Origin: a virus
Direction: 5' to 3' (one strand)
Virus record (IMG/VR): IMGVR_UViG_3300020119_000389
Coordinates: 1-39,760 of that record
DNA length: 39,760 nucleotides
The notes beneath the pieces were generated by a model. It was not told where the DNA came from. It ran no database searches and saw nothing but the letters and a program-made list of their open reading frames with translations. The position numbers and the translations under genes are program-made. Shown here piece after piece: positions 5,427-38,203 of this stretch (its first letter is position 1; each line of letters begins with the position of its first letter).

Positions 5427-6737
5427 ATGTCTCAAATACTCGCTCCAAAGCAAATGGAGTTTATCATCAACTCCAATGGCAAGTGGAACATAGCTCACGG
5501 TTCTGTGCGTTCTGGAAAAACCGTCTGCACGCTCTTTGCTTTTATGGACTCGCTCATAGAGTGCCCCGATTCAAAGATCTGGATGATTGGTAAGACCTCT
5601 GAAACCATTTACGACAATGCCATTCGACTTCTTACCGAGCCACAGGGAGGGAATTACCCTGACTGCCTGGCCATTTTCAGACCTCATCTCACATGGCGTC
5701 CGGCAAAAAGAGAACTCCTTTATCTCGACAAGGTGATAAATACTATTGGGGCAAAAGACGAGGGATCTATTGGGCTTATTCAGGGGAAAACCTTCTCCAG
5801 AGTCTATTGTGATGAGATGACACTTTACCCAGAGTCTGTGATCGACATGATCGACACGCGCCTGTCCTATCCCTATTCCAAAGGCTATGCGTCGATGAAC
5901 CCTTCCTATCCATCACACAAACTCAAGCAGTGGATTGATAGGGGCGAAGCTGGGGATAAAGACTATTACGCGATGCACTTTGAACTGGATGACAACCTGT
6001 TTTTGGATGAATCCTACAAATCCAGAGTGCGCGCTTCATCGAGTGGTCTTTTCTACAAAAGGAACATTTTGGGTCTATGGTGTCTGGCAGAAGGTGCTAT
6101 CTTCGACTTCTTTGACAGGAAAATTCACACATTCCAACGCCCTCCCTGCGCAGCCGAGTACTGGATTGCAGGCATTGACTATGGAACCATCAATCCATTT
6201 GCCTGCGTTATCATGGGGGTATCATCTGGAAAGAATACACAGTCTGGTAAGCGGATCTGGGTGGAGAAAGAGTACTACTGGGATTCCCGAAAGATGGGCA
6301 GGCAAAAGACCAACAGCGAGTACGCAGAGGACATTGCAAACTTCATAGAGCCATATAACATAAAGAGCGTTTATGTTGATCCATCAGCTGCTGCTTTTAA
6401 GGAAGAACTTAGGCGCAGAAAGATACATGTGGTAGATGCGAACAATGAAGTGGAAGATGGGATCCAGATAATGACATCGGAGATGAAGCGGGGAGTATTG
6501 AGCGTATCGTCTGAATGTCCCAACCTAATACGCGAGATTGAAGGGTATGTGTGGGATAACAAGTCAGCTGAACGTGGTTATGATGCACCGGTAAAGCAGG
6601 CAGACCACGCGCTCGATGCTGTTAGATACTGCGTGGCAACACACAAGATAGCGACATTTGACGCCGATGCTTACTACAGAAAACAGGAGATGCAGATGCG
6701 ACAACAGCATGGGTGGGGGAATTCAGCATTTAGATGA
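5427..6737 (+). CDS. terL: Terminase large subunit, 436 aa
   Basis: ATG at 5427 gives the expected N-terminus; the frame is open further upstream but over the antisense gene. ATPase part: Walker A GSVRSGKT at residues 25-32, Walker B VYCDE at 126-130 and MNPSYP at 157-162 as the coupling motif. Nuclease part: D251 in GIDYGT, D318 in VYVDPS and D393/D397 in ADHALDAV make an RNase H-type site. It is of the PBSX/Terminase_3 or Terminase_6 kind, of normal length, and apparently intact. It pumps DNA into the prohead through the portal. No strong ribosome site is visible. Its stop is ATGA-coupled to the next gene. Confidence 0.93.
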   Translation: MSQILAPKQMEFIINSNGKWNIAHGSVRSGKTVCTLFAFMDSLIECPDSKIWMIGKTSETIYDNAIRLLTEPQGGNYPDCLAIFRPHLTWRPAKRELLYLDKVINTIGAKDEGSIGLIQGKTFSRVYCDEMTLYPESVIDMIDTRLSYPYSKGYASMNPSYPSHKLKQWIDRGEAGDKDYYAMHFELDDNLFLDESYKSRVRASSSGLFYKRNILGLWCLAEGAIFDFFDRKIHTFQRPPCAAEYWIAGIDYGTINPFACVIMGVSSGKNTQSGKRIWVEKEYYWDSRKMGRQKTNSEYAEDIANFIEPYNIKSVYVDPSAAAFKEELRRRKIHVVDANNEVEDGIQIMTSEMKRGVLSVSSECPNLIREIEGYVWDNKSAERGYDAPVKQADHALDAVRYCVATHKIATFDADAYYRKQEMQMRQQHGWGNSAFR

Positions 6738-7408
6738 CAGACACAAGAACAGAAATGGAAATCGTAATGTCGAGACTATCGAGCCTAGAGTCACACATAA
6801 TCAACCTGATCATCCCTATCCAGAACATATCCCGGGCGCTGACAGACCCACGTTATGTCAACGATATCCGAAAGACAGCAGATTTTATCATCAACAATCC
6901 CGTCAAACTCGACGATGCAGAATTGAGGCGTGAGTGTAGAGAATTGAAAGCGTTGCTGCGGGAGTTTACAGAGAATAAACAGGCAGTCGATCTCAACCAG
7001 ACTCTGGCAGAGATTAAATATATCGGCAAACGTGTCATGCAGATTGAGCAGTGCTTGGCACGGATCGATGCATCAGGGATTAAAAATGATGTGACGATCT
7101 CTGTGGTCCATAATGGAATAAGGCCAAAGGATTCAGAAGATGAATACTATAACTCTGTGGATATTTCACTTGAGAATATATGTAACTCGCTTCCGATGAG
7201 GGGGTCTGTTTATTTACGTCATTACATAGAAGGCGCGGGAACCGCAACGCAAAGCTCTATTGCAAAAAAGATGGGGATAACATCCGAAAGGGTTGGCCAA
7301 ATAAAGAAGAAAGTAAAGCGAGTATTGAGCAGTCCTTTCTTGCTGCCTGACATTAATAAAATGAAGGATGCTAAGACCAAGGAAATCTTGAGCATGTTGA
7401 TAAAGTAG
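6734..7408 (+). CDS. Sigma-70 region-4-like HTH protein with helical N-terminus, 224 aa
   Basis: ATGA-coupled to terL. Residues 1-115 are long amphipathic helices. Residues 145-200 hold LENICNSLPMRGSVYLRHYI, then QSSIAKKMGITSERVGQIKK: the 'all helices, short loop, S-x-x-R-x-x-Q-I' layout of sigma-70 region 4 or LuxR-type HTH. It lacks regions 2 and 3, so it is not a full sigma factor. It could be a late-gene activator or a region-4 mimic; position between terL and portal is odd for a regulator, and a structural DNA-binding role is also possible. Confidence 0.6.
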   Translation: MTDTRTEMEIVMSRLSSLESHIINLIIPIQNISRALTDPRYVNDIRKTADFIINNPVKLDDAELRRECRELKALLREFTENKQAVDLNQTLAEIKYIGKRVMQIEQCLARIDASGIKNDVTISVVHNGIRPKDSEDEYYNSVDISLENICNSLPMRGSVYLRHYIEGAGTATQSSIAKKMGITSERVGQIKKKVKRVLSSPFLLPDINKMKDAKTKEILSMLIK

Positions 7409-11109: not shown

Positions 11110-11153
11110 ACCGTAAAACAAATCGCTTGTCGGCGTCAAGACAAAGGATAAAA

Positions 11154-11828
11154 ATGACAGTTCCACCAAATGACTCTATCGTTAGCAATGAACAACCCGT
11201 CGATCTGGAGACAAACTTTGCAAGACAGCGAAGACACTACGAGAAACAGTTGGAACAGGAACGAAATGCAAGGCTTGCGGCTGAAGAGAGAGCAGCCCAG
11301 TTGCAAAATTCTATGGGAAGCCGTTCAAACCCAAAAGATGAGGTAGACGATGACGATGACTCCGAACCCTACATCGACAAAAAAAGGCTTAAAAGAACGC
11401 TTGATCGCGTCATTCCAGGCGTGCGCGAAGAAGCTAAAAATGATGTTCGTCAGGAAGTTCAAAGGGCGATAGTTCAGGAAAGAAGAAATGCGTGGATGAA
11501 GACCAATTCAGATTTTCAGGAAGTGATGTCACATGCGCAGACTTTTGCCGAGAGATTCCCGGAAGAAGCGGAAACTATTCTTGAGCTTCCCGAGGGATTT
11601 GAGAGACAGAAACTTGTCTATCATGCCATCAAACGCCAGCAGCTTCATAAAAAACCAGAGCCCCAGCAATCCATTCAGCAGAAGATTGATGCCAACCGCA
11701 AGTCTCCCTACTATCAGCCCTCTGGTGTTGGATCTGCTCCCTATTCATCGGGTGGAGATTATTCACCAAGCGGTCAGAAGAACGCCTATGAAAAGATGCA
11801 GGAGCTAAAACAGAGATTAAGGATTTGA
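11154..11828 (+). CDS. Scaffolding protein, 224 aa
   Basis: I chose ATG at 11154 because AAGGAT precedes it; a TTG at 11127 is in frame but overlaps that site. Residues 22-52 form a coiled coil (RQRRHYEKQLEQERNARLAA), residues 62-72 are an acidic run (DEVDDDDDSEPY), then a charged helix to about residue 150 and a P/Q/S-rich tail. This composition, length and position between portal and capsid gene are those of head scaffolds. It should direct procapsid assembly and then leave. Sequence alone cannot show proteolysis. Confidence 0.75.
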   Translation: MTVPPNDSIVSNEQPVDLETNFARQRRHYEKQLEQERNARLAAEERAAQLQNSMGSRSNPKDEVDDDDDSEPYIDKKRLKRTLDRVIPGVREEAKNDVRQEVQRAIVQERRNAWMKTNSDFQEVMSHAQTFAERFPEEAETILELPEGFERQKLVYHAIKRQQLHKKPEPQQSIQQKIDANRKSPYYQPSGVGSAPYSSGGDYSPSGQKNAYEKMQELKQRLRI

Positions 11829-11833
11829 AAGGA

Positions 11834-11905
11834 CTCCAGGTGCAGGATTTGAACCTGCGGCCAACGCATTAACAGTGCGCTGCTCTACCGCTGAGCTAAC
11901 CTGGA
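11834..11905 (-). tRNA. tRNA-Asn (GTT)
   Basis: On the minus strand a full cloverleaf folds: acceptor TCCAGGT/ACCTGGA, D arm GCTC-AGCGGTA-GAGC, anticodon arm GCGCA-CTGTTAA-TGCGT with anticodon GTT, variable loop TGGCC, T arm GCAGG-TTCAAAT-CCTGC, discriminator G. The 3' CCA is not encoded. Seventy-two bases. It reads AAC/AAT codons, which fits the Asn-rich tail proteins. It lies between scaffold and capsid genes, head-to-tail with the nuclease-fold gene upstream, whose stop codon is inside it. Confidence 0.95.
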
Positions 11906-12273
11906 ATAATAGATCTTTTGTATGGGGCATATGAGTTTAAAGAAATCTGTCTTGCCGAATGAATGTCGGAAGACGGGATCTCATAAACATCCATCTGTTC
12001 GGTAACAACAAAAATAAAGTCGCAGGAAGCCGGATCAAACTTCTTTATCGAAGTGTTTGGCTGGTTTCCTCCGCTGCTTCTTATGTTTGCCGAGTATACT
12101 CCATACTTTGTCTTGTATGAGCATGAGACAACTTTGATCCTGAACAGCCCCTTTTGATCGTCAAAAATCAGATTATATTCACAGGGAGAAAGGGGAATGC
12201 TTACCATACCGCGCAGAGCGTAGTAGGAGATTGCAATTCCAACAGCTCCCTTTCCTCTGATTTCTTTCGTCAT
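11896..12273 (-). CDS. PD-(D/E)XK-like (PDDEXK_5 type) protein, possibly inactive, 125 aa
   Basis: Leftward. The layout GKGAVGIAISYYALRGMVSI-PLSPCEYNLIFDDQ-RIKVVSC-FDFIF follows the small PD-(D/E)XK family found with group I introns and as phage free-standing nucleases: helix, 'PLS/PFG' turn, Y-D-L-x-x-D, then I-Q-V-K-T. Here the usual first Asp is Asn (EYNLIF) and the catalytic Lys position is Val (IKVVS), so catalysis is doubtful. The TAG stop is formed by bases 8-10 of tRNA-Asn. It could be a decayed homing enzyme that carried the tRNA in. Confidence 0.5.
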   Translation of the reverse strand: MTKEIRGKGAVGIAISYYALRGMVSIPLSPCEYNLIFDDQKGLFRIKVVSCSYKTKYGVYSANIRSSGGNQPNTSIKKFDPASCDFIFVVTEQMDVYEIPSSDIHSARQISLNSYAPYKRSIIPG

Positions 12274-12300: not shown

Positions 12301-12328
12301 TTCAAAAATATGAATGAATTAATATACT
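12301..12328 (+). promoter_or_regulatory. Candidate promoter for the capsid gene
   Basis: TTCAAA at 12301-12306, 16-base spacer, TATACT at 12323-12328, preceded by a T-run. It would give a leader of nearly 200 bases before the capsid ATG at 12529. Confidence 0.4.
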
Positions 12329-12364
12329 GACAAATAAACGTTTTACTTGTTAAATTAAAGATTC

Positions 12365-12486
12365 GCTAGCGCAGGCGTTACTGCGCACTCGCTCTCACCG
12401 GCGTTAAGGTGAAAATCGCGTAAGGAAGATTTCGCAACTTCCATCCCCGGTATGTCTGAAAACGGACGTAGTAGGTCGTTTCGTCC
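12365..12486 (+). promoter_or_regulatory. Structured RNA leader of the major capsid gene
   Basis: The leader packs at least four hairpins. GCGCAG/CTGCGC at 12369-12386 has loop GCGTTA; TCACC/GGTGA at 12395-12412 has loop GGCGTTAA, so two hairpins show the same GCGTTA. GGAAG/CTTCC follows at 12424-12442 and a seven-pair stem with an AAAA loop at 12452-12469, which can alternatively use CGTCC at 12482-12486. No open frame explains this stretch, and the capsid start has only a weak ribosome site. A cis-acting or processed RNA is likely; its role is unknown. Confidence 0.55.
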
Positions 12487-12528
12487 ACCGATCAGCATGC
12501 CAATAGTGACTCGACAATTGAGAATCCC

Positions 12529-13500
12529 ATGTCAATTACTACAACTGGCAATTTGGGGCCAATGATCCTCCAGTCGCTTGCGCCTGCGATGCTCTATGTC
12601 CCAACGCCAACAATGAACTACATTCTCGTTTGCGACAAAGTTTCCATGCCAGCAAATGGCGGAACAACTTGCCGCTTTATGAGACCAAGAGCTCTCGTAC
12701 CACCTACTGTCCAACTTGGCAATAGTGGTATCGATCCCCCAGCTCAGGTACCACAGCGTGATATCATCGATGCACAAATGGCATTCTTTGGTACAGGCTG
12801 CATCATCAATGAGCAGGTTATTCTGCAGGACCAGGAAGGCGTACTCGCCTGGGTTTCTGAGAGACTCGCTGTTGCAATGCGTCAGGCTGAAGATCTTATT
12901 CTGCGCGACTACATTGTTTCTGCTGCTTCCCAGATTTATGCTGGTGGCGGATCCAATGGAGATAACCCAACCAACCTTGGAGTCACAGACTTCTCGCTGG
13001 TTGCTGCAACTCTCGATACCAACAATGCCTACAAATTCATGTCAGGGATTGAAGGTATGGATCGCTTTGGCACAGGTCCTGTTCGATCTGCATATTTTAT
13101 GCTCAGCTCAACAGAACTGCAGCCAGACTTTGATGGAATGACAGGATCTGGATTTCTTTCCACCTGGCAATACCCAACAAATGCATCTGCTCTGCCATCA
13201 GAATATGGTTCAGTTTACAACATTCGTATTCTGACAAGTTCTGAAGCACCGGTTGCAAGAGCATCCTCCCAGAATGCACAGGACGTGTATTACAATACAG
13301 TTCTCGGTAAGCAGGCTATCACGCATATTAATCAGGATGGATATTCCATGAATCTGATTTATCGCGATCCCTACTATTCCGGCATGCTCGCACAGAACGC
13401 AACTCTTGGTGTTAAGTTTGCGCAGGCGCAGGCGATCACGCAGGATACTGCAATCCGAAACCTTCTTAGCACCAGATTAAACTCTGCTGCAGGACCATAA
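12529..13500 (+). CDS. Major capsid protein (N4-gp56 family), 323 aa
   Basis: ATG at 12529; ribosome site weak (GAG). The pattern DKVSMPANGGTTCRFMRPRA, then DAQMAFFGTGCIINEQ and QAEDLILRDYIVSAASQIYA, fits N4-gp56-type major capsid proteins of HK97 fold: a conserved 'P-x-N-x-G-x-T-x-x-F-R' strand and an 'AE-x-x-D-x-x-I-R-D' helix. Length is at the short end of the family, without an added Ig domain. It follows the scaffold gene and a structured leader that probably sets its high expression. Confidence 0.85.
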   Translation: MSITTTGNLGPMILQSLAPAMLYVPTPTMNYILVCDKVSMPANGGTTCRFMRPRALVPPTVQLGNSGIDPPAQVPQRDIIDAQMAFFGTGCIINEQVILQDQEGVLAWVSERLAVAMRQAEDLILRDYIVSAASQIYAGGGSNGDNPTNLGVTDFSLVAATLDTNNAYKFMSGIEGMDRFGTGPVRSAYFMLSSTELQPDFDGMTGSGFLSTWQYPTNASALPSEYGSVYNIRILTSSEAPVARASSQNAQDVYYNTVLGKQAITHINQDGYSMNLIYRDPYYSGMLAQNATLGVKFAQAQAITQDTAIRNLLSTRLNSAAGP

Positions 13501-34413: not shown

Positions 34414-34655
34414 ACCTGATCCTTTGAGCCATCTTTATCATAGTATGCGCTTTTATCAATAAATTCTTTTATGAAAACATCAATCAATTCCACTGCAATT
34501 TCTCTGAATTTTTGACGGGATTTACAATTTCTCATTAGAGTAAAAAGGAAAATGTAACTTGTGGCATTAATTACACTTTTATCCGAAGTGTCGTTTTTTA
34601 AAATACACTCATCTATTTTTTTAAGTAATTTTATGTTTTCTTCATCATTAATCAT
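34410..34655 (-). CDS. Small helical protein of a three-gene family, 81 aa (member 1)
   Basis: I chose the ATG at 34655 because it overlaps the exonuclease stop as ATGA; an upstream ATG at 34673 is within the exonuclease gene. Core ATSYIFLFTLMRNCKSRQKF then REIAVELIDVFI. Three copies in a row directly after a recombination exonuclease suggest an accessory role in the recombination operon or a defence-related expansion; unknown. Confidence 0.55.
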   Translation of the reverse strand: MINDEENIKLLKKIDECILKNDTSDKSVINATSYIFLFTLMRNCKSRQKFREIAVELIDVFIKEFIDKSAYYDKDGSKDQV

Positions 34656-35503
34656 ATCTGATCCATCCTCCATCGTATCATTGCAGGTTTCCTATAAGCT
34701 TCCAGATTCACATTCTGAAGTTCAGGCACGGAACTGTAGTCAATATGCCCTTTTGTGTGCACTGGAATCATCTTTATCCGATACCCTACACTTGGCTTCT
34801 CTCCACATAGATCAATGAGCTTTCTTTTCAGATTCTCTTTTCTCTCTTCAATGGCTTTGCTCTGGGTAATCAGGTGACTGAGTTCCTCTTCAAGCATCAG
34901 CCATGTCCTGTCTTCTCTTTTTACCAGATCTTTGGCGGTGGGTTCTGGAGGGATTCCAAGCTGCATGTTGTCCCAAAACTCTTTCTCCATCTTCATCATA
35001 CCCGGTACAAAATCAAAATCCCTGGCTACCTTAATAAGAGCACAGGGCTGAATATCTCCCGGGCGATAGCTGAAATAATAAATATCATTAACTCCGGCTA
35101 CTACTATTTGATGCTGAAGCTGCGGATAGTATTTATCAGGAACCTTACCACTCACTGCAATATCATGGTCTGCTTTTCCAGGACATTTTATTTCGCAGCA
35201 AATCCCAGCGTCATTAATTCCGTCCATGCTCGCACCCATCCATGGGAATGCGTAATTTGTGATCCATTCAGGATTAACAAAATGACCTGTGATCTGCTCA
35301 AAAGCGCGCCTCGCCTCTGGTTCCAGATCATTTCCACGTTTCATGGCATCATTTTGAACAGTCTCACGAGCCTCCATCTTGTCAAAATAAAGCTGTCTTG
35401 CAGTTTTCCAGGGAGACAGCCCCATAATTGGAGCTGCATCCGTGGCTGTGATGAGTTTTCTTCTGGCTTCCAGCCATTCTTTGGAACCGATCTCTAGTTT
35501 CAT
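34652..35503 (-). CDS. YqaJ/lambda-type exonuclease, 283 aa
   Basis: Leftward, ATGA-coupled on both sides. LEARRKLITATDAAPIMGLS is the YqaJ N-terminal signature; RGNDLEPEAR gives the conserved E63 helix; the catalytic set is D94 in ASMDG, E104-x-K106 in CEIKC and Q128/Q132 in YYPQLQHQ. All PD-(D/E)XK residues are present. It should resect double-strand ends 5' to 3' for the Bet protein encoded 190 bases upstream. A helical C-terminal extension (about 200-240) is typical. Confidence 0.88.
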   Translation of the reverse strand: MKLEIGSKEWLEARRKLITATDAAPIMGLSPWKTARQLYFDKMEARETVQNDAMKRGNDLEPEARRAFEQITGHFVNPEWITNYAFPWMGASMDGINDAGICCEIKCPGKADHDIAVSGKVPDKYYPQLQHQIVVAGVNDIYYFSYRPGDIQPCALIKVARDFDFVPGMMKMEKEFWDNMQLGIPPEPTAKDLVKREDRTWLMLEEELSHLITQSKAIEERKENLKRKLIDLCGEKPSVGYRIKMIPVHTKGHIDYSSVPELQNVNLEAYRKPAMIRWRMDQI

Positions 35504-35694
35504 CTTACTGTGACTCCATAGGGAACATTATGCGATACATCCATATCAATTCGGTTTGCAGTGGAATGTCTTATTCTGTAATCCGTTGGCAGATCATGCA
35601 CAATTTTGACTTCGATGACCCCACGTGGAACAAACAGGTAAAATGCAATGCCCACAATAAATGTGTGGGCACAAAACATGGCTAAATTTTTCAT
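35500..35694 (-). CDS. Small membrane protein between bet and exonuclease, 64 aa
   Basis: ATGA overlaps on both sides (35691-35694 and 35500-35503). An N-terminal membrane segment (NLAMFCAHTFIVGIAFYLFV) is followed by a soluble beta-rich part (EVKIVHDLPTDYRIRHS). It is unusual to find a membrane protein between the two recombination genes. Function unknown. Confidence 0.55.
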   Translation of the reverse strand: MKNLAMFCAHTFIVGIAFYLFVPRGVIEVKIVHDLPTDYRIRHSTANRIDMDVSHNVPYGVTVR

Positions 35695-36440
35695 GTTTTA
35701 TCCTTAACTTTTCTTCTTTTCTCAAATACATTTACCACATATCCAAAGTCTTTCTGCTCCAAATCATACACGTCAGATAGTCCAAACTTTTCACACAGGC
35801 CTTTTTTGGAATCGGGAAACTCTTCAAGGTACACATCTAGCTGTGCAGACTGTTCTTCGGTGATTTTTTGTTCTATTACTGGAGGATTAACAGTGACATT
35901 TTCCATGACATCGGCCTGTTCCATTTCATCTTTGGTGTAAATGCCGGACATTTCAGCAGGGAAAGCTCTTCGTAGTGCAATGGACTCTGCACATTTTGCA
36001 AGCATTACATGCGGCATATTTGACCAGAATTGTGTTACTTTGCCGTCTTTATCTTTCTGCACATACTCTTCAAAATAGGCTGTAGCAGCCACTTCATGCC
36101 ATGTACCATCCGATGTGCGCTTTTTCACATAACTGGTAGCAGAAATGATTTTTTTGTTGTCGTCATAGACATACAGTGGCTCTCTTCCGGGGGAATAGTT
36201 TCCTGTTCTCTCAGCAATCAGCCTAAATCCATCGATGGAGGTTTGGATGGTCATGGTGTATCTTTTATCTTTATTGCTCCATCTTGGCACTGGATAGATC
36301 TGTCTCATAAAAGGATCCAGACCGGTGCGACGGCAAACTGCACTAAACAGTTCAAATTCGTCGTCGGTTGAGCCTTTACAGATTGTTCTCTTTATTAAAT
36401 CAGTTTTTGTATCTATGTGTTGTGATGACTGTAGGCTCAT
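35691..36440 (-). CDS. bet: Bet/RecT-type single-strand annealing protein, 249 aa
   Basis: ATG at 36440 with GAGGAG upstream and ATGA overlap. ELFSAVCRRTGLDPFMRQIY, PVPRWSNKDKRYTMTIQTS-IDGFRLIAERTGNY and MLAKCAESIALRRAFPAEMS are the defining stretches of phage Bet proteins (RecT clan). It anneals complementary single strands produced by the exonuclease. The C-terminal 60 residues are a typical variable tail. Order here is bet, membrane protein, exonuclease. Confidence 0.92.
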   Translation of the reverse strand: MSLQSSQHIDTKTDLIKRTICKGSTDDEFELFSAVCRRTGLDPFMRQIYPVPRWSNKDKRYTMTIQTSIDGFRLIAERTGNYSPGREPLYVYDDNKKIISATSYVKKRTSDGTWHEVAATAYFEEYVQKDKDGKVTQFWSNMPHVMLAKCAESIALRRAFPAEMSGIYTKDEMEQADVMENVTVNPPVIEQKITEEQSAQLDVYLEEFPDSKKGLCEKFGLSDVYDLEQKDFGYVVNVFEKRRKVKDKT

Positions 36441-38023: not shown

Positions 38024-38203
38024 ATGGAACTTACGCAGGAAGAGGTAGCTAAAGTTGTCTATGCATCTATCATTATGGCCATAAAAGATATGAGAGATAA
38101 TGGGATAGGGGATGATTATCATATCGGGTTTCCTGATTTTGTGACTATTGATGATTCTGTATATGAATTTATCTCGGCAAAGGAGAGATTGAAATGCCAT
38201 TGA
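38024..38203 (+). CDS. Hypothetical protein, 59 aa
   Basis: ATG immediately follows the RusA stop, with AGGAG seven bases upstream. [20 protein letters not shown] begins a helical protein; [20 protein letters not shown] follows. Overlaps the next gene by ten bases. No family recognised. Confidence 0.6.

What the first reader, a model, noticed from the sequence alone, without database searches (positions are those of the whole stretch)
12329..12528. Structured leader RNA before the major capsid gene with twin GCGTTA loops
A promoter-like element at 12301-12328 would give a ~195-base leader. Two consecutive hairpins present GCGTTA in the loop, followed by GGAAG/CTTCC and a seven-pair hairpin with an AAAA loop; alternative pairing is possible with 12482-12486. 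The capsid gene itself has only a weak ribosome site. Twin identical loops suggest a protein or RNA partner binding twice, e.g. capsid autoregulation, RNase III control or a stabilising 5' element. I know no named motif with this form.
Basis: partly seen in the sequence, partly recalled or inferred. Interest (0 to 1): 0.7.

Follow-up and report, generated by a model that had tools for sequence, protein, structure and literature searches.

The report
Tandem pseudoknot leader of capsid mRNA
In a large group of uncultured bacterial viruses, the message for the main shell protein begins with a row of tightly knotted RNA folds that evolution has kept in shape while changing their letters, which suggests a new way to protect or control one of the virus's most needed messages.

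Summary
The twin GCGTTA loops are real, but they are half of something larger. Each loop's GCG pairs with a CGC just upstream, so each hairpin is an H-type pseudoknot. A third pseudoknot of inverse polarity (12418-12442) and a stem-enclosed fourth (12449-12501) follow. Among 95 distinct leaders upstream of relatives of this capsid gene, sequences diverge but the fold covaries: 118 pseudoknots against 5.2 in shuffles; a sequence-only model finds the terminal domain in 83 of 95 loci, with 72 double-changed pair cells against 15 in shuffles. Modules vary in number and order. The first pseudoknot stem starts 6-8 nt after a predicted -10 box in 31 of 53 leaders that have a promoter match, control mean 3, so it sits at the predicted 5' end of the mRNA. 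In the window that promoter is 12327-12356, not 12301-12328. A single pseudoknot also precedes the ribosome site of the gene before the capsid gene, probably scaffold (48 of 82 leaders). No Rfam family matches. That this is a conserved RNA of the sense strand is close to certain. Its function is inferred: most likely a 5' mRNA shield; the main rival is a translational operator.

The parts
12327..12356 (+). Predicted promoter of the capsid transcription unit: -35 CTGACA 12327-12332, -10 TAAATT 12351-12356 (TG before the -10); predicted start about 12363-12364
   Evidence: same spacing to the first pseudoknot in relatives. Start site inferred, not measured.
12364..12386 (+). Module A1, H-type pseudoknot: S1 CGC 12364-12366/GCG 12375-12377; S2 GCGCAG 12369-12374/CTGCGC 12381-12386; loop 3 UUA 12378-12380
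   Evidence: covariation of S1 and S2 in relatives
12390..12412 (+). Module A2, H-type pseudoknot: S1 CGC 12390-12392/GCG 12401-12403; S2 TCACC 12395-12399/GGTGA 12408-12412; loop 3 UUAA
12418..12442 (+). Module B, H-type pseudoknot of inverse polarity: S1 GCG 12418-12420/CGC 12433-12435; loop 1 UAA; S2 GGAAG 12424-12428/CTTCC 12438-12442
12449..12501 (+). Terminal domain C: outer stem GGTATG 12449-12454/CATGCC 12496-12501 (extended by CTGA 12456-12459/TCAG 12492-12495); inner stem GGACG 12464-12468/CGTCC 12482-12486; pseudoknot GG 12474-12475/CC 12488-12489; conserved unpaired GAAAAC, GTA, GATC
   Evidence: R2 hit 12447-12503, E 6.1e-11; sequence-only model and pair counts
12502..12528 (+). 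27-nt spacer with a weak ribosome site; in many relatives a small hairpin holds the ribosome site here
12529..13500 (+). Major capsid protein gene (323 aa)
   Evidence: PHROG 1357 E 1.1e-19; weak match to a solved major capsid protein, 9e99, E 0.0098
11124..11143 (+). Single type A pseudoknot (CGC-T-TGTC-G-GCG-TCAA-GACA) directly before the AAGGA ribosome site of the upstream gene
   Evidence: same place in relatives
11154..11828 (+). Gene between portal and capsid genes (224 aa), probably the scaffolding protein; no family match
   Evidence: position and charged, probably coiled sequence; no Pfam or PHROG match: inference

Best explanation
SHOWN: the capsid mRNA leader is a conserved RNA made of a variable row of H-type pseudoknots (A: CGC-S2-GCG-UYA-S2'; B: GCG-UWA-S2-CGC-S2') ending in a stem-enclosed pseudoknot (C). 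INFERRED: transcription starts at the first base pairs of the first pseudoknot, so the mRNA has almost no unpaired 5' nucleotides. The row then works as a 5' shield. It hides the 5' triphosphate from pyrophosphohydrolase and from 5'-end-dependent nucleases, and each further pseudoknot is a roadblock to 5'-to-3' decay and keeps the leader from pairing with the ribosome site. One of the phage's most needed messages thus stays long-lived and translatable. The single pseudoknot abutting the ribosome site of the upstream, probably scaffold, gene would be a minimal version of the same device.
For: RNA fold. Sense-strand RNA: 37 G-U against 5 A-C cells in the stems of C. Position at the 5' end whatever the first module type: first stem 6-8 nt after the predicted -10 in 31 of 53 leaders with a promoter match, control mean 3, max 8 (28 of 66 at exactly 7 nt against 1.9). 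Shape kept while letters change, modules swap type (A, B) and number varies, which suits a mechanical role better than a letter-specific operator. Once per genome, before the capsid gene. B. subtilis RppH is reported to need at least two unpaired 5' nucleotides (PMC3997798, passages seen).
Against: No transcript end, half-life or structure was measured. The host, and so its nucleases, is unknown. In the upstream gene the predicted start lies about 8 nt before the pseudoknot, so its 5' end would not be hidden. Domain C has conserved unpaired letters (GARAAC, GUA, GAUC) that look like a recognition site. The third loop of A modules is UYA in 29 of 32 pseudoknots found by pairing alone, which may be structural or recognised.
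Confidence: 0.42

Rival explanations
1. Translational operator: an unassembled capsid-assembly protein (capsid or scaffold) or another phage protein binds the pseudoknots in both leaders and represses initiation, matching synthesis to assembly, as gp32 does on the T4 gene 32 leader pseudoknot.
For: Only two leaders in the window carry these pseudoknots, those of the capsid gene and of the gene before it. In the upstream gene the pseudoknot abuts the ribosome site. A hairpin of at least 5 bp holds the capsid ribosome site in 50 of 95 leaders, swapped control mean 19, max 29. Conserved unpaired letters in C. Precedent in T4 (PMC3014915, passages seen).
Against: The capsid leader's row starts at the predicted transcription start, which an operator does not need. 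Module type and number vary and stem letters are free. C is not found in 12 of 95 loci. No binding protein identified.
Confidence: 0.3
2. Processive antitermination RNA: like HK022 put RNA, the nascent leader binds RNA polymerase and makes it pass terminators of the long late operon.
For: At the very start of a predicted unit of same-strand genes running to about 31.6 kb, once per genome, formed as soon as it is transcribed.
Against: Ends a nearly fixed 25-32 nt before the capsid start codon in 56 of 70 parsed leaders, which antitermination does not need. The pseudoknot of the upstream gene abuts its ribosome site. The put paper holds no mention of pseudoknots (find in main text).
Confidence: 0.1
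3. Ligand-sensing riboswitch: C, or the row, binds a small molecule and gates the ribosome site.
For: H-type pseudoknots are common aptamers (recalled); C has a conserved unpaired core; ribosome-site hairpins exist.
Against: Found only before capsid genes of one phage group, no metabolic gene context. C is replaced by B-type modules in some leaders. No Rfam match.
Confidence: 0.06
4. DNA-level element or chance hairpins.
For: The window's own fold is only z -1.84.
Against: Compensatory changes, G-U tolerated but A-C not, about 100-fold density over the rest of the loci.
Confidence: 0.01

Closest known systems
Phage T4 gene 32 leader pseudoknot (translational operator)
   Same: An H-type pseudoknot in the 5' leader of a phage mRNA upstream of the ribosome site; that message is reported as the most stable T4 mRNA (PMC3014915 passages).
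   Different: One pseudoknot there; here a row of variable number, two polarities and a stem-enclosed form, before capsid and scaffold-like genes. No binding protein known. No sequence relation tested.
5'-terminal stem-loop mRNA stabilisers (ompA type)
   Same: Structure at the extreme 5' end with few unpaired nucleotides (inferred here).
   Different: Pseudoknot rows with covariation instead of a simple hairpin; stabilisation not shown here. ompA facts recalled; only its reference titles were seen.
HK022 put antiterminator RNA
   Same: Structured nascent RNA soon after a phage promoter.
   Different: The put paper holds no mention of pseudoknots; here there is tight coupling to the capsid start codon.
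Exoribonuclease-resistant RNAs and tandem pseudoknots of plant and animal RNA viruses; tmRNA pseudoknots
   Same: Pseudoknot rows that protect or scaffold RNA (recalled).
   Different: Here DNA phages of bacteria, at the 5' end of an mRNA. In C the pseudoknot partner lies inside the outer stem. Resistance untested.

Membership tests
Any Rfam 15 family | Covariance model score at or above the gathering cut-off | tested here: not met
   Window: only the tRNA; ten relatives' loci: only tRNAs. Permissive scans of the window leader and the L062 leader give only matches far below cut-off.
H-type pseudoknot (fold class) | Loop of one stem pairs with the strand beside it, with compensatory changes in both stems | tested here: met
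   S1 of module B varies little (GTG/CAC 4 of 7, ACG/CGT 4 of 15, some of these at A sites).
T4 gene 32 type autoregulated leader | Leader pseudoknot upstream of the ribosome site | tested here: met
T4 gene 32 type autoregulated leader | Repression by the gene's own product binding the pseudoknot | not testable with these tools
   Needs binding and reporter assays.
5'-terminal mRNA stabiliser | 5' end within or next to base-paired nucleotides | tested here: inconclusive
   Predicted from promoter spacing; no transcript ends available.
5'-terminal mRNA stabiliser | Longer mRNA half-life | not testable with these tools
   Needs an experiment.
   No such hit even at E 10; best capsid model Phage_capsid_4, E 0.016.

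The most novel reading that the evidence does not exclude
A new class of prokaryotic virus RNA: an evolvable 5' cap of pseudoknot modules, added, lost and swapped like beads, that blocks 5'-end-dependent decay of capsid-assembly messages. It would be a DNA-phage counterpart of the exoribonuclease-resistant RNAs of eukaryotic RNA viruses.
Probability: 0.25. Interest if true: 0.88.

Novelty: new variant of a known kind. Interest (0 to 1): 0.72.

Why it matters
It appears to be an undescribed, strongly covarying RNA family in a phage group for which a capsid search of 50,697 phage records gave no match. If it is a 5' shield, it gives bacteria a portable mRNA stabiliser and shows how a DNA phage protects a key message. 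If it is an operator, the row allows a direct test of how phages match scaffold and capsid synthesis. Either way the two inverse pseudoknot modules are compact, well-defined folds for structural work.

Tried and rejected
Rfam scans of window and relatives: nothing but tRNAs above cut-off. Kissing of A and B loops: not favoured, because where A's S1 changes (for example CGGC/GCCG in L059) B stays GCG/CGC. First G-U versus A-C test on A and B stems: uninformative, since each stem was chosen as the longest under each rule (22 against 46 and 76 against 81); its anchors also mixed module types and were tightened. First promoter scan broke ties towards the far end and was redone. RNA outside capsid leaders: the viral pattern scans give 51 loci; 50 lie before a capsid gene and one, L112, ends just after the RNA. 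The genome scan gave 2 loci: one Peregrinibacteria MAG contig with a split capsid gene (L133) and one chance match in a Nocardioides sequence without a capsid gene. Host: 2 of 379 genomes of the MAG's phylum match the capsid protein, one of them that MAG itself and one remote (22% identity), so the host stays unknown. Independent origins of the C pseudoknot change: 10 and 11 changes on a quick capsid tree, 56 of 57 rows agreeing, but only 3 pairs on well-supported branches (all concordant, p 0.25). Capsid model by AlphaFold2: pLDDT 30.7, not used. A second R2 match at 38085-38127 (E 0.047) lies in a presumably coding stretch and is taken as chance. Literature: searches show no paper on such a leader in their listings; searches did not find the P22 scaffold autoregulation that I recall.

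Rows dropped: one search reported 100 distinct leaders; they were stored under locus names, so leaders sharing a first locus name overwrote each other, and L054, L065 and L286 (capsid start not the true first exon, or no start codon) were removed; 95 remained and are the n of the later calls. A2 used 57 of 70 parsed domains. A4 used 70 of the 75 and A5 59 of the 72 anchored stretches. One search covered the records of 49 of the 95 loci.

Full report
WHAT IS THERE. The window is a 39,760-base virus record. ORF 12529-13500 is its major capsid protein (PHROG 1357, E 1.1e-19; no Pfam family at E 0.001; no match in 50,697 phage records). Read with their surroundings they are H-type pseudoknots: CGC 12364-12366 pairs with GCG of the first loop, and CGC 12390-12392 with GCG of the second (module A, twice). 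The GGAAG/CTTCC hairpin is the core of a third pseudoknot of inverse polarity, GCG 12418-12420 with CGC 12433-12435 (module B). By energy alone the window is unremarkable (z -1.84).

RELATIVES. Capsid searches and two RNA-pattern scans of viral contigs and one of genome contigs gave 100 distinct leaders. 95 of them are used below: three loci without a usable first exon or start (L054, L065, L286) were removed, and leaders stored under the same locus name overwrote each other. The capsid protein is well conserved (83-94% identity to the window among 18 relatives in A1), while the leaders share little beyond short motifs. A pairing descriptor, written after I had seen the sequences, finds 118 pseudoknots in the last 200 nt of the 95 leaders against 5.15 (sd 2.0) in dinucleotide shuffles, with at least one in 78 of 95 leaders. 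With loop signatures added, density is 5.76 per kb in 94 leaders against 0.058 per kb elsewhere on the same strand of those loci (140 against 58 hits; 23 on the other strand); in the whole window, both strands, there are four hits, three in this leader.

COVARIATION. Domain C: a sequence-only model from 57 rows finds it in 83 of 95 loci, once each, in 1.06 Mb; 26 of the 38 loci not used to build it are found. The twelve misses are L006, L007, L020, L038, L039, L052, L061, L073, L074, L080, L279 and L280. On that alignment 89.8% of cells pair, 72 cells are changed on both sides against 15.0 in shuffles (0 of 500 reach it), and slid versions give at most 29. The C pseudoknot covaries: CC with AGG 63 of 66 (the other three hold GG as well), CG with ACG 15 of 15, CT with AAG 2 of 2; Fisher p 1e-13, not corrected for relatedness. 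Stems of C hold 37 G-U and 5 A-C cells, as expected of RNA read from the + strand. Module A stem 2 pairs with its own partner (at least 4 bp) in 58 of 80 instances against 13.5 on average (max 26 of 1000 swaps); module B in 71 of 89 against 28.2 (max 42). Module A stem 1: loops with GCG have CGC upstream in 36 of 52, ACG has CGT in 13 of 15, CCG has CGG in 4 of 4, GAG has CTC in 1 of 1, and CGC stands before only 2 of 47 non-GCG loops. Column counts agree: covariation score 0.378 against 0.177 for A and 0.371 against 0.149 for B, though the number of pairs with double changes does not exceed shuffles in these two short alignments, and the B rows were chosen with fixed GCG and CGC. B stem 1 evidence is thinner: GCG with CGC 57 of 73, GTG with CAC 4 of 7, ACG with CGT 4 of 15. 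On a quick capsid tree the two sides of the C pseudoknot change 10 and 11 times and agree in 56 of 57 rows, but only three independent pairs lie on well-supported branches (all concordant, p 0.25).

ARCHITECTURE. Parsed leaders (70 with C) show orders such as ABC (29), BC (12), AC (8), BBC (5), AABC (4) and longer rows; C ends 25-32 nt before the start codon in 56 of 70 (the rest include inserted hairpins and a few misparses such as L042). Some leaders end in a B module instead of C. When pseudoknots are found by pairing alone, loop 3 of A is UUA or UCA in 29 of 32, while loops 1 and 2 vary. In C the unpaired GARAAC, GUA and GAUC are conserved.

THE 5' END. A promoter search that knows nothing of the fold finds a match of at least 9 of 12 in 53 leaders. 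The first stem-like triplet follows the -10 by 6-8 nt in 31 (7 nt in 23); random anchors give 3.0 on average, 8 at most. This holds whether the first module is A or B (L055, L060). In the window the site is 12327-12356 with 7 nt to the first CGC. With the usual start 7 or so nt after the -10 (established knowledge), transcription would begin at the first pair of the first pseudoknot. No transcript was measured.

A SECOND LEADER. Outside capsid leaders, by my reading of the list 33 of the 58 same-strand hits (plus one in the window, 11124-11143) are a single pseudoknot directly before the ribosome site of the gene upstream of the capsid gene. That gene (11154-11828, 224 aa, no family) is probably the scaffold protein by position. 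Of 82 distinct leaders of this gene, 48 hold a type A pseudoknot with at least 3 bp in stem 2 (35 with the stricter scan), with CGC/GCG 42, CGT/ACG 3, ACG/CGT 3. Of 58 anchored instances, 38 pair at 4 bp or more against 17.0 swapped (max 28). L279 and L280 appear by eye to have a B-type pseudoknot there (sequences). Here the predicted -10 lies 15 nt before the pseudoknot, so about 8 unpaired nt would precede it.

MECHANISM. Shown: a conserved sense-strand RNA of modular pseudoknots tied to capsid-assembly genes. Inferred: it acts on the mRNA in cis. I favour a 5' shield (0.42), because the row starts where the message is predicted to start whatever the module, because shape rather than letters is kept, and because modules are interchangeable. 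B. subtilis RppH is reported to need at least two unpaired 5' nucleotides (PMC3997798, passages). The best rival is a translational operator (0.30): only the scaffold-like and capsid leaders carry the fold, one of them against the ribosome site, and the capsid ribosome site is held in a hairpin of at least 5 bp in 50 of 95 leaders (19.1 swapped, max 29; not in the window). T4 gene 32 is the precedent (PMC3014915, passages). Autoregulation of scaffold synthesis in P22 is recalled and was not found. A put-like antiterminator (PMC9378689, passages) and a riboswitch are less likely.

KNOWN OR NEW. No Rfam 15 family reaches its cut-off in the leader of the window or anywhere but tRNAs in ten relatives' loci. 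Five literature searches (listings and abstract starts seen) show no such leader; the library lacks most subscription papers. R2 searches of 49 records find C in 43, once each apart from two weak extra matches (E 0.195 and 0.65). I file it as a new variant of a known kind (structured phage mRNA leader with pseudoknots), with an architecture I know from no named family.

LIMITS. All relatives are metagenomic contigs, and the host is unknown. The descriptor and module names are mine. Swaps and shuffles do not remove relatedness.

Noticed in passing
L133, L111, L096, L103, L109, L117, L118, L124, L127, L290 and others: The capsid gene of many relatives is split by intervening sequences at many different codons (for example after residues 29, 36, 69, 88, 97, 120, 171); L054 and L065 look like introns. 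A heavily intron-invaded capsid gene.
   Followed up: no
window 11831-12273: tRNA-Asn and a PDDEXK_5 gene on the - strand sit between the scaffold-like gene and the capsid leader. In relatives this interval varies in length and 11 of 95 have tRNA genes within 4.5 kb upstream of the capsid gene: an insertion hot spot.
   Followed up: partly
window 6734-7408: ORF between terminase and portal genes with a weak match to a phage sigma factor family (phrog_351, E 4.5e-5); could serve the conserved promoters.
   Followed up: no
upstream of the scaffold-like gene in relatives: A shared promoter-like pattern TTGCCN-17-TTTAAT followed by ATCCAAC just before the pseudoknot.
   Followed up: partly
L011, L012, L013, L092, between C and the start codon: 50-90 nt inserts holding long hairpins between domain C and the capsid start codon.
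   Followed up: no
window 34652-36440 (-): YqaJ recombinase nuclease and RecT annealing protein genes, a phage recombination pair.
   Followed up: no
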